In this document: piece after piece, positions 1,571 through 56,056 of the stretch
Layout: each line of letters starts with the position of its first letter
Position numbering within the stretch: position 1 is the stretch's first letter
Origin: Parafannyhessea umbonata
GTDB lineage: Bacteria; Actinomycetota; Coriobacteriia; Coriobacteriales; Atopobiaceae
Length of the DNA: 64,000 nt
Direction of reading: 5' to 3'
Assembly (NCBI RefSeq): GCF_012844235.1
Contig: NZ_JABAGR010000009.1
Coordinates: forward strand, 1-64,000
Made by a program: the position numbers and the translations under genes
Notes under the pieces: generated by a model
Told to the model about the DNA's origin: nothing
The model's input: the letters and a program-made list of their open reading frames with translations, nothing else
Database searches by the model: none

Positions 1571-2476
1571 CTATTCAGCCTGTGACAAGCCGGACCTACC
1601 CAAGGCCTCGAGGAAGGCCTCGCGCGTCGAGGGATCCTTGAGCGCAAGGCGTGCGTTCACGCCGGCCCACGCCGCAGGCGTGCCCGTGTCGCACCCCTCG
1701 TCCACGTCGACGACGAGCGCGTACATGTCCTCCTCGGCAAGCAGGCGCTCCATCGCGTCCGTGAGCTGGATCTCTCCGCCGGCGCCGACGCCCTGGTTTG
1801 CCAAGAGGTCCATTATGCGGGGCGACAGCAGGTAGCGGCCCACGATGAACAGGTGAGACGGCGCGTCCTCGGGCGCGGGCTTCTCGACGAGCCCCGTCAC
1901 CTTCCAGACGGCACCCTCCTGCTCGTCCGCCGTGTCCGTCCCGTCAAGCGAGCCCACGCACTCGCCGGCGATGATGCCGTAGCGGCTCACCTGGTCGGCC
2001 GGCACGGGCGCGACCGCGATGACGGACGCGTTGCCGTGCTGCCTCGACACCTCGGCCATGCGCACGCACATTTGTCGGTCCGGCACGAAGTAGTCGCCGA
2101 GAAGAACGAAGAACGGCTCGTCGCCAACCGCCTCGGCGGCGCAGTGCACGGCGTGCCCCAGGCCCCGCGGGTTGTCCTGGTACACGAACGAGACCGGCAT
2201 GCTCGACGCCTCGTGCACGAGGTCCGCCTCGGCCTTCTTGCCTCGCTTGCGCAGCATGTCCTCGAACCCGCCGTCAACGCGGAAGTACGACTCGATCTGC
2301 GGCTTCTCGCGCGAGTTGACGATGATGACCTCGTCGACGCCCTCGGGCTCGAGCGCCTCCTCCACCACGTACTGGATGACCGGCTTGCTCAGCACCGGAA
2401 GGAGCTCCTTTGGGGTGCCCTTGGTTGCCGGCAGGAAGCGGGTCCCCAGACCCGCGGCCGGAATGACTGCCTTCAT
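1571..2476 (-). CDS. galU: UTP-glucose-1-phosphate uridylyltransferase
   Basis: The enzyme makes UDP-glucose from UTP and glucose 1-phosphate in the cytoplasm, for cell-wall polysaccharides and glycolipids. The 301-residue length is normal. The N-terminus MKAVIPAAGLGTRFLPATKG is the nucleotide-binding signature; the EKPAPEDAPS stretch near residue 180 and GGEIQLTDAM near 220 are typical of the family. I start at the ATG at 2476 because AAAGGGA precedes it at good spacing and homologues begin here, although the frame stays open upstream. The phosphohexomutase-like gene follows after 11 nt, so the two are probably cotranscribed. Confidence 0.93.
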   Translation of the reverse strand: MKAVIPAAGLGTRFLPATKGTPKELLPVLSKPVIQYVVEEALEPEGVDEVIIVNSREKPQIESYFRVDGGFEDMLRKRGKKAEADLVHEASSMPVSFVYQDNPRGLGHAVHCAAEAVGDEPFFVLLGDYFVPDRQMCVRMAEVSRQHGNASVIAVAPVPADQVSRYGIIAGECVGSLDGTDTADEQEGAVWKVTGLVEKPAPEDAPSHLFIVGRYLLSPRIMDLLANQGVGAGGEIQLTDAMERLLAEEDMYALVVDVDEGCDTGTPAAWAGVNARLALKDPSTREAFLEALGRSGLSQAE

Positions 2477-2673
2477 GCGTATCCCTTTCGATTGCAGGTC
2501 ACCGCGACGCCGTCCGGCGCGCGGTCGCGGCGCACCCGTCAGGTCCGGGTAAGCCACGCTCCCATTTCCCCATCAGAATAGCCGATGCGGCGCCGCGGCG
2601 CCCCTCCCCTTCGGGAGGCGGCTGCGTTTGCGGCTCGCACGTCGCGGTCCCACGCCCGCGAACCTCGCGAAGG

Positions 2674-3675
2674 CTACCGCGCCCCCAGCGCGTCCAGCTG
2701 CGCCACAACGGCCGCCGTGTCCGCAAGCGGCCGGTCGCCACCGCACCAGATGGCGCACGCGCCGTCGCCCGCAAGCGTCCGCACGGCGGAAGCCACCGCC
2801 TTGTCGCGCGTGGCGCCCCCCACGTCGCGCGCGATGCCGGCAGAAGGCCCCGTCAGCCCGGCCTCTTCGGCCACCGTCCCGCATGCGTCCGGCACGAGGC
2901 GCACGACCAGGGACCGCCCGCTCTTCTCCGCGGCGCGCGAAAGCTCTTGCGAGAAGGACGCGACGTCCCCCGTCCGGAGCTCCGCCCCAACCGCGTGGGC
3001 ACCCTCCGCCGCAAGCGCGCGAAAAGCCTCCGCCGGCACCTGGCCGTCCGGCGTCGCGGGCCCCGCGCCCCGTGCGCCCGTCGCCGGGGCAAACGGCACC
3101 GTCGCCACAAGCGGCCCGCCCCACACCTTCTTGACGGCTCGCGTCAGGGCGCAGGCGGACGCGAGGTCGTCCGCCCAAACCATCATGCCGTGCACGCCGG
3201 CCTCCTTCAGCGTGGCCGCCTGCAGCATGAGCGAGTCCAGTGCCTCGCCGTCGAGCGCGCACCCGCGCTGGGCCACCAGCCCCATCACGAAGCGCGGCCC
3301 GCACGAGCGCGCCTCGCGCACCGCCTGCTCGTTCACCTGGTCAGCCACGTCGCGCAGGCCTCCCTCGAGCTGCGCGGACGCACACCCGGCCGTGTGCGTC
3401 AGCGCGCACTCCGCGCCCGCCGCACGATACAGCCCGTGCAGCTGGCCCATGAGCGCGTCGTCGTCGATGTTCCACTCGGCCTCGGGCACGCCGTCCGAGA
3501 AGGGCTGCCTCCTCAGCAGGGGCCCCATGTCGCCCGAAAGCACAAGCGGCCTCGGCGCACGTCCCGTGAGCGCGCGCCCGAGCTCCGCGGACTTCAGGGC
3601 CTCGCCGTCCTCCGTATCCGCCGGGTCCTGCCACAACAGGCAGCTCGGCCACGCGCGTCCTGCCTCACCCGCCAT
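2674..3675 (-). CDS. Homocysteine S-methyltransferase-like protein, zinc site degenerate
   Basis: The 333 residues align along their length with the homocysteine-binding TIM barrel of MetH/BhmT-type methyltransferases: RPLVLSGDMGPLL (43-54) for the usual DGAMGT, then NIDDDALMGQLHGLYRAAGAE (from 69) and a barrel ending in CAIWCGGDRP (307-316). These enzymes hold zinc with three Cys, in NCS and GGCCGT motifs. Here the first becomes GAELRTGD (no Cys) and the second keeps one Cys, so zinc-thiolate chemistry is unlikely. The start overlaps the stop of the MntR-type regulator (TGATG), so it is translationally coupled to it. A different barrel family is possible, but the N-terminal and C-terminal landmarks fit. 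A CCTCCC/GGGAGG hairpin lies just beyond the stop. Confidence 0.55.
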   Translation of the reverse strand: MAGEAGRAWPSCLLWQDPADTEDGEALKSAELGRALTGRAPRPLVLSGDMGPLLRRQPFSDGVPEAEWNIDDDALMGQLHGLYRAAGAECALTHTAGCASAQLEGGLRDVADQVNEQAVREARSCGPRFVMGLVAQRGCALDGEALDSLMLQAATLKEAGVHGMMVWADDLASACALTRAVKKVWGGPLVATVPFAPATGARGAGPATPDGQVPAEAFRALAAEGAHAVGAELRTGDVASFSQELSRAAEKSGRSLVVRLVPDACGTVAEEAGLTGPSAGIARDVGGATRDKAVASAVRTLAGDGACAIWCGGDRPLADTAAVVAQLDALGAR

Positions 3676-4121
3676 CAGTCTTCCACCGCGATTCCCTGCT
3701 TCTCTAGGTATGCCAGCCAGCGGTCCTGCGTGTCGTCAGAAAGCGCGTGCTCCATCAGGCAGGCCTCCTCGTCGGCGACCTTCGGGTCCACCCCAAGGTC
3801 GCGCACCAAGAACAGCCGCAGCATGCGATGGCAGCGCCACACGCGCTTGGCATAAACCAGGCCCGTATCCGTAAGCTGTATCCTGCCGTAGCGGTTCTGC
3901 TCCACGTAACCCGCATCGCGCAGCGTCGAAACCGCCTTGTTTACGCTGGCCTTCGACACGCCAAGCTGCTCCGCAACATCCACGGAACGCACGCCGTCCA
4001 TAGCGTTATGTTCCTGCATTATTCGATAAATGGACTCTATATAGTCCTCGTTCGATTTCGTAAGGTGCGGCGCCCTCCTCGTGGCGCCGCCCACTTGGCT
4101 CGCGTACACGCCTTCCGCCAC
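3675..4121 (-). CDS. DtxR/MntR-family metal-dependent transcriptional regulator
   Basis: This is a winged-helix repressor of the MntR/DtxR group, which senses Mn(II) or Fe(II). HLTKSNEDYIESIYRI (residues 19-34) opens the DNA-binding domain, SVDVAEQLGVSKASVNKAVS is the helix-turn-helix, and the dimerisation/metal part carries Cys and His residues (CHRML, EEACLMEHALSDD). No SH3-like third domain is present, as in MntR. I place the start at GTG 4121 because GAGGAGGG sits directly before it; upstream in-frame ATGs (4190, 4211) lack a good ribosome site, and the longest frame would begin inside the murA terminator. The product is then 148 residues, close to MntR. The downstream methyltransferase-like gene is coupled. 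Confidence 0.8.
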   Translation of the reverse strand: MAEGVYASQVGGATRRAPHLTKSNEDYIESIYRIMQEHNAMDGVRSVDVAEQLGVSKASVNKAVSTLRDAGYVEQNRYGRIQLTDTGLVYAKRVWRCHRMLRLFLVRDLGVDPKVADEEACLMEHALSDDTQDRWLAYLEKQGIAVED

Positions 4122-21940: not shown

Positions 21941-22682
21941 GGTACACGTGAGCCTCGAGTTGACGTGCCCATACACGTCGCGGCCGAGTTTCACGGGTCG
22001 GTGCAAGCTCGCGGCAGACGTGTACCGGGCCGGATACACTTCGCGGCCGAGTTTCACGGGTCGGTGCAAGCTCGCGGCAGACGTGTACCGGACCGGTACA
22101 CATGGGCGCGCTTTTGGCAAGAACCTGCGAACTCGGGCCAGACGAGTACCATCGAAAGTCGAACCATGTCAGGAACTTCGAGATGTGTACCGAGTAGTTC
22201 GTTAAGACTTTGATCGCGCAGGTCATCTACCTCATATTATGTGGAATTAGACTAATTCCTCATGGTACACGTCAGGGCCGAGTTTGCATTTTCCGGTACA
22301 CATGGGCGAGTTCCTGCCATGGTTAGAACATTTATGGTACACGTCGGCCGCGAGTTTGCGGGATCCCGCGCGTTTCTGCCACACGTGTACCGGCGGGAGG
22401 CATGCCCGGTACACTTCTGCCCCCAGTTTACGGGATCCCTGCAAACTGGGGGCAGGTGTGTACCGCCAAGGCGCCCCCCGGTACTCGTCTGCCCCGAGTT
22501 TCGTGCAACCGTGCAAACTCGGCGCAGGTGTGTACCGGCGTCTATCGCCAGCGTACTCGTCTGGCCTGAGTTTACGCCAGCCCTGCAAACTCGGCGTCGA
22601 CGTGTACCGGCGCGCCGCTTGCCCGTACTCGTGGGGCCCGAGTTCACGCCGGCCCTGCAAGCTCGCGGCCGATGTGTACCGG
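21941..22682. repeat. Hairpin-repeat array 1 (about ten GGTACAC...GTGTACC units)
   Basis: The 1.1-kb gap between the oxidoreductase and rpmE holds no gene. It contains 56-59-nt units, each bounded by GGTAC(A/T)C and GTGTACCGG, with arms that contain CCGAGTTT and GCAAACTCGG. Complete units: 21971-22028, 22034-22091 (57 of 58 bases identical to each other), 22095-22150, 22336-22393, 22408-22465, 22480-22538, 22552-22610, 22624-22682. Partial units lie at 21941, 22155-22195, 22264 and 22295. The unit at 22408 has a perfect 12-bp stem. Each unit folds into a long imperfect hairpin. An AT-rich spacer (22199-22260) splits the array. The remaining 21712-21940 is plain GC-rich sequence. Confidence 0.85.
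22243..22259. promoter_or_regulatory. Palindrome and possible promoter inside array 1
   Basis: GGAATTAG-A-CTAATTCC is a perfect inverted repeat in the AT-rich spacer of array 1. Just upstream on the plus strand stands TATTAT (22234-22239), a 5 of 6 match to a -10 box, with TTGATC 19 nt before it. If active, it would transcribe the right half of the array (22264-22682). Confidence 0.35.
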
Positions 22683-23275: not shown

Positions 23276-23350
23276 ACTGGGACTCCTTTGGTAGGCCTGG
23301 TTTCCGACCAGGCGAGGATGGTAGCCCTGGTTCCAATCAGGGCGTCAAGC
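23276..23350 (-). promoter_or_regulatory. rpmE leader with two tandem stem-loops (L31 leader candidate)
   Basis: Two similar stem-loops stand head to tail before rpmE. The first in transcription order is at 23324-23343 (6-bp stem GCCCTG/CAGGGC), the second at 23295-23313 (stem GCCTGG/CCAGGC). Each has GGAA in the loop and is followed by the same CTACCA. The second ends just before the ribosome site. L31-type ribosomal-protein leaders have been proposed computationally for several groups, as I recall including Coriobacteria, and this fits autoregulation by bL31. TATAGC on the minus strand (23350-23355) could be the -10 box. Confidence 0.65.
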
Positions 23351-55492: not shown

Positions 55493-55999
55493 GGTACGCA
55501 CCGGGGGTGACCTTGCAAGATTCCGCAAACTGGAGCCGGGTGTGTACCCGCAGGCCCACGCATCGCTACACACCCCATGCGAGTTTGCACGTTTTTCCAA
55601 TCTCGCGCGGGGTGTGTTGCGTCTCGACGGTCCCCATGGCAGAAAGTGGCGGGTGTGTACAGCTACAATAGCTTGAATCCTTATGTGTTGAGCCGCTGAC
55701 CTGCAATCATATGAATTCTAATCTGTCTTACGGGGGGTACACACCCTCGGCTTTATTGCATTTTACGCAACACACCCCGCGATTCTTGCCTCAGGACCCA
55801 GATTTTCGTCACACACCAAGGGTGAGTTAGCGGAATCTTGTAAACTCTCCCCCAGTGTGTACAACGGTGGGTACACACTCGGGGTGACCTTACAAGATTC
55901 CGCAAACTGGGATTCGGTGTGTGACGCAACCCCGACACCCCGGGGTACACACCAGCGCCGACCTTACAGATCCGTGCAGACTGAGGCCGGGTGCGTGCG
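55493..55999. repeat. Hairpin-repeat array 3 (same family as array 1)
   Basis: The 804-bp gap between the HAD gene and glycogen phosphorylase holds no gene. Units of about 57 nt bounded by GGTACACAC and GTGTGTACC lie at 55493-55549, 55566-55621, 55807-55863, 55870-55925 and 55943-55999, with partial units near 55635-55660 and 55736-55800. The first and fourth share GGTGACCTT(A/G)CAAGATTCCG and GCAAACTGG. The termini and the GCAAACT block match array 1, so both belong to one family. 55665-55735 between units is AT-rich. Confidence 0.8.
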
Positions 56000-56056
56000 G
56001 CTCAGCTGATCCGCGCACGCCCGCACGTCCATCAGCCGCCGGCACCGCCACCCCCC

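What the first reader, a model, noticed from the sequence alone, without database searches (positions are those of the whole stretch)
21941..22682. Array of about ten GGTACAC/GTGTACC hairpin units between rpmE and an FAD oxidoreductase
Eight complete 56-59-nt units and several partial ones stand in one orientation. Two neighbours are 57/58 identical, others differ mainly in the loop, and both arms vary together so that long stems are kept (for example TGCCCCCAGTTT paired with AAACTGGGGGCA at 22408-22465). Co-varying arms point to selected structure, not to simple duplication. No gene lies inside. I know of no named repeat family that fits.
Basis: partly seen in the sequence, partly recalled or inferred. 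Interest (0 to 1): 0.72.

Follow-up and report, generated by a model that had tools for sequence, protein, structure and literature searches.

The report
Mobile arrays of phased inverted repeats
The hairpin array is one of about two dozen copies, in this actinobacterium, of a gene-less mobile DNA element built from one short word repeated in both directions at nearly whole-helix-turn spacing; the word differs between related elements and species, which points to an unknown DNA-binding partner rather than to a folded RNA.

Summary
The array is real: eight complete 56-57-nt units plus half-units at 21941-22681. It is not a local oddity. It is one of 12 loci in this genome carrying a dispersed non-coding element (family A). 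A homologous older family B has about 12 more loci, one in this window (55495-56010). All but one or two damaged copies share a constant-length core of about 225 nt flanked by hairpin units. Related elements occur in both congeneric genomes held. Short TIR-bounded relatives of about 105 bp may occur in one further genus. No plasmid, phage or Rfam match was found.

The proposed co-variation fails. In 44 units the two arms pair no better than shuffled arms (73.5% against 74.3%). What is kept is sequence: a word of about 10 bp (A GGTACACGTC, B GGTACACACC, C GGTACAGAACC) repeated 10-20 times per element and replaced throughout an element between subfamilies, at fixed spacings near multiples of 10.5 bp.

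All 9 family-A loci tested lack the element at the orthologous site of a congener. One site is clean and compatible with a 3-bp duplication.

Best reading: a MITE/BIME/BOX-like non-autonomous mobile element carrying phased binding sites for an unidentified trans-acting protein. Mobility is well supported; the protein and mechanism are inferred.

The parts
21941..22681 (+). Family A element, whole copy (no gene inside)
   Evidence: 87-92% identical copies of its left part at other loci of the genome; absent from the orthologous site of congener G001
21941..21967 (+). Left terminal half-site GGTACACGTGAGCCTCGAGTTGACGTG (imperfect terminal inverted repeat with the right end)
   Evidence: Same left end in 11 of 12 copies
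21971..22027 (+). 57-nt hairpin unit 1
22034..22090 (+). 57-nt hairpin unit 2 (near-identical to unit 1)
22095..22150 (+). 56-nt hairpin unit 3
22166..22391 (+). Core of constant length (225-226 nt) shared by families A and B: outward-facing words around CTACCT...TATGTGGAATTAGACTAATTCC; includes the 56-nt core-right unit 22336-22391
22243..22259 (.). Perfect dyad GGAATTAG-A-CTAATTCC at the centre of the core
   Evidence: Sequence; less perfect in B and C copies
22408..22464 (+).
22480..22536 (+). 57-nt unit, 72-nt register
22552..22608 (+). 57-nt unit, 72-nt register
22624..22680 (+). 57-nt unit, last of the array; its right end GATGTGTACC differs from the AGAAGTGTACC found at most other right ends
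55495..56010 (+). Family B element (word GGTACACACC / GGTGTGTACC), second copy of the superfamily in this window
55637..55862 (+). Core of the family B copy

Best explanation
A non-autonomous mobile DNA element (MITE-like in its ends, mosaic like a BIME or BOX element) that carries an array of binding sites for a sequence-specific DNA-binding protein. Each half-site is a word of about 10 bp (GGTACACGTC in family A) followed by about 6 variable bases and a GAGTTTGC/TTCTTGC box. Half-sites stand in inverted pairs (the hairpins) and also face outward from a fixed core. Same-orientation words sit mainly about 41, 63, 73, 102 and 200 bp apart, most of these close to whole turns of B-DNA, so a protein could bind them on one face. 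Shown: dispersed copies, fixed architecture, word constancy within an element, word replacement between subfamilies (a third word throughout the known copies of one congener), spacing, lineage-specific occupancy, no gene inside. Inferred: the element is mobilised in trans, the protein that reads the word is the transposase/recombinase or its partner, and the array grows and shrinks by recombination between units.
For: Twelve family-A and about 12 family-B loci, all intergenic by codon scoring. Core length is constant across families. All 9 A-only loci tested are empty in congener G001, whose flanks are 85-97% identical. L036 against L241 is a clean empty site, compatible with a 3-bp (GCC) duplication. 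The C word occurs 43 times in G002 and once each in G000 and G001. At the suf site flanks are 95.5% identical but cores only 61-64%, while copies inside the genome are up to 93% identical. Word spacings peak at a period of 10.5 (R 0.79). Arms do not co-vary. Possible short relatives with inverted ends of about 20 nt in another genus.
Against: No transposase found: no Y1/RAYT in the genome, no gene inside the copies, and other transposase families were not searched genome-wide. Only one empty site gives an exact junction, and its 3-bp duplication is in GC-rich sequence. The 291 word distances fall into few classes and are not independent; taking five classes as independent I estimate p of about 0.05 by hand. 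Loss from G001 is not formally excluded for each single site. Composite A+B copies could reflect recombination rather than insertion. The link to the short elements in G113 rests on weak model scores (E 7e-5 to 9e-4).
Confidence: 0.62

Rival explanations
1. Host-useful DNA-binding arrays (nucleoid organisation, chromosome segregation or a regulon), spread and kept because the host uses them.
For: Phased words, an element at the same suf-operon site in three species, concerted word difference between species.
Against: Copy number is 2 loci in G001 and about 24 in the window's species; 9/9 A sites empty in the sister species; flanking genes are unrelated.
Confidence: 0.15
2. Structured RNA: transcribed hairpins under selection for pairing.
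For: Strong folding, z -11.9 to -14.2; one unit is almost fully paired.
Against: No covariation above shuffles; both strands fold alike; no promoter-like or terminator-like site in the array by simple consensus; no Rfam match; words are conserved between units, which pairing alone does not require.
Confidence: 0.07
3. A passive tandem repeat, grown by slippage and homogenised by gene conversion, with no trans-acting protein.
For: 72-73-nt periods, unit number varies 1-5 to the right of the core, shared spacer types between copies and chimeric units; divergent cores at the same site in two species.
Against: Does not explain dispersed copies at intergenic sites that are empty in the sister species, defined left and right ends, or word constancy outside the tandem units.
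Confidence: 0.12
4. Ends or remnants of a known system: integron attC array, CRISPR, or the ends of an insertion sequence.
For: Inverted repeats in a regular array.
Against: No cassettes or unique spacers between units; no gene between ends except one nested insertion with an rve domain; the short end words do not identify a known IS.
Confidence: 0.04

Closest known systems
BOX elements of Streptococcus pneumoniae (PMC3049150)
   Same: Dispersed repeats with strong secondary structure, common in one species, sparser in its close relative and nearly absent elsewhere, judged parasitic. From my own knowledge: BOX has fixed ends and a variable number of internal units.
   Different: Here the units are inverted pairs of one word at regular spacing, with a fixed core and word subtypes; no sequence comparison with BOX was made.
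REP / BIME / REPIN with RAYT transposases (PMC2817692, PMC3116915, PMC3733652)
   Same: Palindromic units in mosaic arrays with short spacers, extragenic, sometimes inverted pairs thought to be mobilised in trans.
   Different: Unit 57 nt instead of 20-40 nt; about 24 loci instead of hundreds of units; no RAYT; family A's word happens to contain CGTC but B and C do not, and no GTAG tag was seen; a 225-nt core is present.
Bacterial MITEs (e.g. PMC2229807, PMC5896051)
   Same: Gene-less, imperfect terminal inverted repeats, intergenic, lineage-specific occupancy; possible short relatives of about 105 bp with TIRs in another genus.
   Different: No autonomous parent found; internal arrays of 1-5 further inverted units; words replaced in concert.
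Transposon ends with multiple transposase sites (e.g. Tn7 ends; own knowledge)
   Same: Several copies of a binding motif of about 22-25 bp.
   Different: Here they are spread through the whole gene-less element and mostly in inverted pairs.

Membership tests
REP/BIME (RAYT-associated) | RAYT (Y1_Tnp) gene in the genome | tested here: not met
   PF01797 not found in the genome; the same search finds it in 5 of 14 control genomes
REP/BIME (RAYT-associated) | 20-40-nt palindrome with a GTAG or CGTC tag | tested here: not met
   Units are 56-57 nt; CGTC only in family A's word, absent from the B and C words
MITE | Gene-less, dispersed, lineage-specific insertion | tested here: met
MITE | Terminal inverted repeats | tested here: met
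   Imperfect TIR of about 27 nt, GGTACACGTGAGCCCCGAGTTGACACG against GGTACACTTCTGCCGCGAGTTTGCACG; about 20 nt in the short G113 elements
MITE | Target-site duplication | tested here: inconclusive
   Compatible with a 3-bp GCC duplication at one site; other junctions not exact
MITE | Autonomous parent with the same ends | tested here: inconclusive
   None seen in the loci read; transposase families other than Y1 not searched genome-wide
BOX | boxA/boxB/boxC sequence | not tested
   No sequence comparison with BOX was made
CRISPR | Unique spacers between repeats | tested here: not met
   Spacers of about 15 nt recur between loci
CRISPR | cas genes | not tested
   No search for cas genes was run; none recognised among the window neighbours identified
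Integron attC | Gene cassettes between sites | tested here: not met
   No gene predicted between units; IntI itself not searched
Structured RNA family | Covariation above control | tested here: not met
Structured RNA family | Match to a known Rfam family | tested here: not met

The most novel reading that the evidence does not exclude
A mobile element whose whole set of binding words, 10-20 copies per element and all known elements of a genome, switches together between sister species, driven by coevolution with an unknown word-reading recombinase; the elements home to or overwrite older copies at the same sites.
Probability: 0.3. Interest if true: 0.78.

Novelty: new variant of a known kind. 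Interest (0 to 1): 0.55.

Why it matters
If right, one superfamily offers three natural subtypes of a DNA-recognition word in one conserved architecture, with two of the species close enough (about 95% in flanking genes) to read single insertions. It would let one ask how a mobile element and its DNA-binding partner change specificity together, and whether elements are overwritten in place by conversion or by repeated insertion. It also warns that strongly folding, strand-symmetric arrays can be mistaken for RNA: the covariation test decides.

Tried and rejected
Scan of 84,980-species contigs for the paired-arm pattern: 17 hits, one per contig, in unrelated organisms, judged chance from scatter and number and not inspected further. 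IMG/VR scans: none for two element patterns; three single hits for a G113 end word, without an inverted partner on reading, taken as chance. Plasmids and phages, distant blastn: none. Weak blast hits outside the genus showed no repeated word. Literature searches for the words and for Coriobacteriia/Olsenella/Atopobiaceae repeats gave nothing relevant. RNA reading: rejected. In the arm-shuffle script the two window units at 21971 and 22034 were one base out of register, which lowers their pair count; the alignment-based test has them in register and shows no excess either.

Full report
Searches show eight complete 56-57-nt inverted units and several half-units at 21941-22681, with an exact 72-nt period in the last four. 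The window has 14 GTACAC/GTGTAC in these 740 bp and 39 in the other 63 kb. The neighbours are rpmE and an FAD-dependent oxidoreductase. No gene inside is supported.

It is a copy of a dispersed element. Searching the own genome with one unit or with the left part gave 12 loci of family A; the left part is 87-92% identical where it aligns at length. Aligned copies share a left half-site, one or two hairpins, a core, and 1-5 units of 72-73 nt on the right. Eleven of 12 copies start with the same left half-site. One copy is split by an insertion whose ORF carries an rve domain. One lacks the core (L036).

Three A copies continue directly into a second, homologous repeat, family B. B has about 12 loci, including window 55495-56010. 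A and B align over a core of 225-226 nt. In B the word is GGTACACACC, in A GGTACACGTC. In the composites the junction unit has an A left arm and a B right arm, so recombination within units, or movement of the composite as one piece, has occurred.

Relatives. A pattern search of 298 Coriobacteriia genomes found the family A pattern nowhere else. A sequence-only model of the core found B in congener G001 (three cores at two loci) and a weak match in G002. The G002 element has the same architecture with a third word, GGTACAGAACC. That word occurs 43 times in G002 and once each in G000 and G001. The B word occurs 28, 6 and 4 times in G000, G001 and G002, with reversed-pattern controls of 3, 2 and 0. 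In C and B cores the word positions relative to the ACCTGC box are nearly the same. A second model found three weak matches in G113, another genus, which are elements of about 105 bp with inverted ends around GGGTGTGTAC and an internal ACCTGC-like box. I regard this link as probable, not proven. A fourth genome, G318, has a different array with the word GGTACAG.

Covariation test. Forty-four A units were aligned. With a 22-pair stem, 73.5% of cells pair against 74.3% in shuffles; pairs with changes on both sides are 7 against 7.7. By region, pairing of arms exceeds re-dealt arms only in the outer seven positions, where the two units left out of register in that script contribute; the middle nine pair at 55%, as shuffled. 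The arms are therefore conserved as sequence. Both strands fold about equally strongly, as palindromes must.

Helical phase. Adjacent same-orientation words are mainly 41, 62-63, 72-74, 102 and 200 bp apart; 72-74 and about 200 recur in A, B and C. The mean resultant over the periods tried peaks at 10.5 (0.79). The 291 distances are not independent; taking five classes as independent I estimate p of about 0.05 by hand. I treat this as supportive only.

Mobility. Flank sequences from nine A-only loci were located in G001 and G002. In G001 all nine orthologous intergenic sites lack the element and show no array of its words, with most flanks 85-97% identical. At L036 the site is clean: G001 reads GGCCGCCGTGAG where G000 has GGCCGCC-element-GCCGTGAG, compatible with a 3-bp duplication. 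None of the G002 stretches fetched for these loci shows an array of words. At the suf operon site all three species carry an element: B, two tandem B, and C. There the flanks of G000 and G001 are 95.5% identical on the suf side but the cores only 61-64%, while the G000 core is 93% identical to a copy at another locus. The same holds at the L040/L135 site (near flank 95.2%, cores 69%). So copies are replaced or converted, or the site is re-used.

Inference. Word constancy within an element, its replacement in concert, fixed spacing, lack of covariation and recent lineage-specific occupancy fit an array of binding sites for a protein that acts on DNA. That this protein moves the element is my inference. 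The family resembles MITEs in its ends and BIME and BOX in its mosaic units. It is not a member of REP/BIME as tested (no RAYT; no tag) nor of any Rfam family.

Noticed in passing
window 55495-56010: Second, older copy (family B) of the same superfamily, between a HAD hydrolase and a carbohydrate phosphorylase.
   Followed up: yes
L040, about 2290-3900 (C25, about 39.8-41.4 kb): Insertion with an rve-domain ORF (IS3-like by recall) nested inside a family A copy.
   Followed up: partly
window 23283-23314 (-): L31-Coriobacteria ribosomal leader (RF03128) upstream of rpmE, 44.9 bits.
   Followed up: no
L256 1500-1800: Different array in another genus (G318): word CTGTACC with CGAGAAA boxes about 42 bp apart, near a contig end, then two inverted copies.
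   Followed up: partly
L036 2215-2232 and other A loci: The left flank of most A copies reads GGC.GCC or CGGCGTC, possibly a target preference; at L036 it is present in the empty site too.
   Followed up: partly
L034, L037, L038 upstream of the left half-site: A shared G-rich leader around GTGCGGGTGCGGCGTCGGTG lies left of the element in L037 and L038, and a similar one in L034; it may be part of the inserted unit.
   Followed up: no
L236 783-1614: At the orthologue of the L038 site, G001 carries a different insert of about 830 bp with reading frames that look like a toxin-antitoxin pair (inference from reading, not tested).
   Followed up: no
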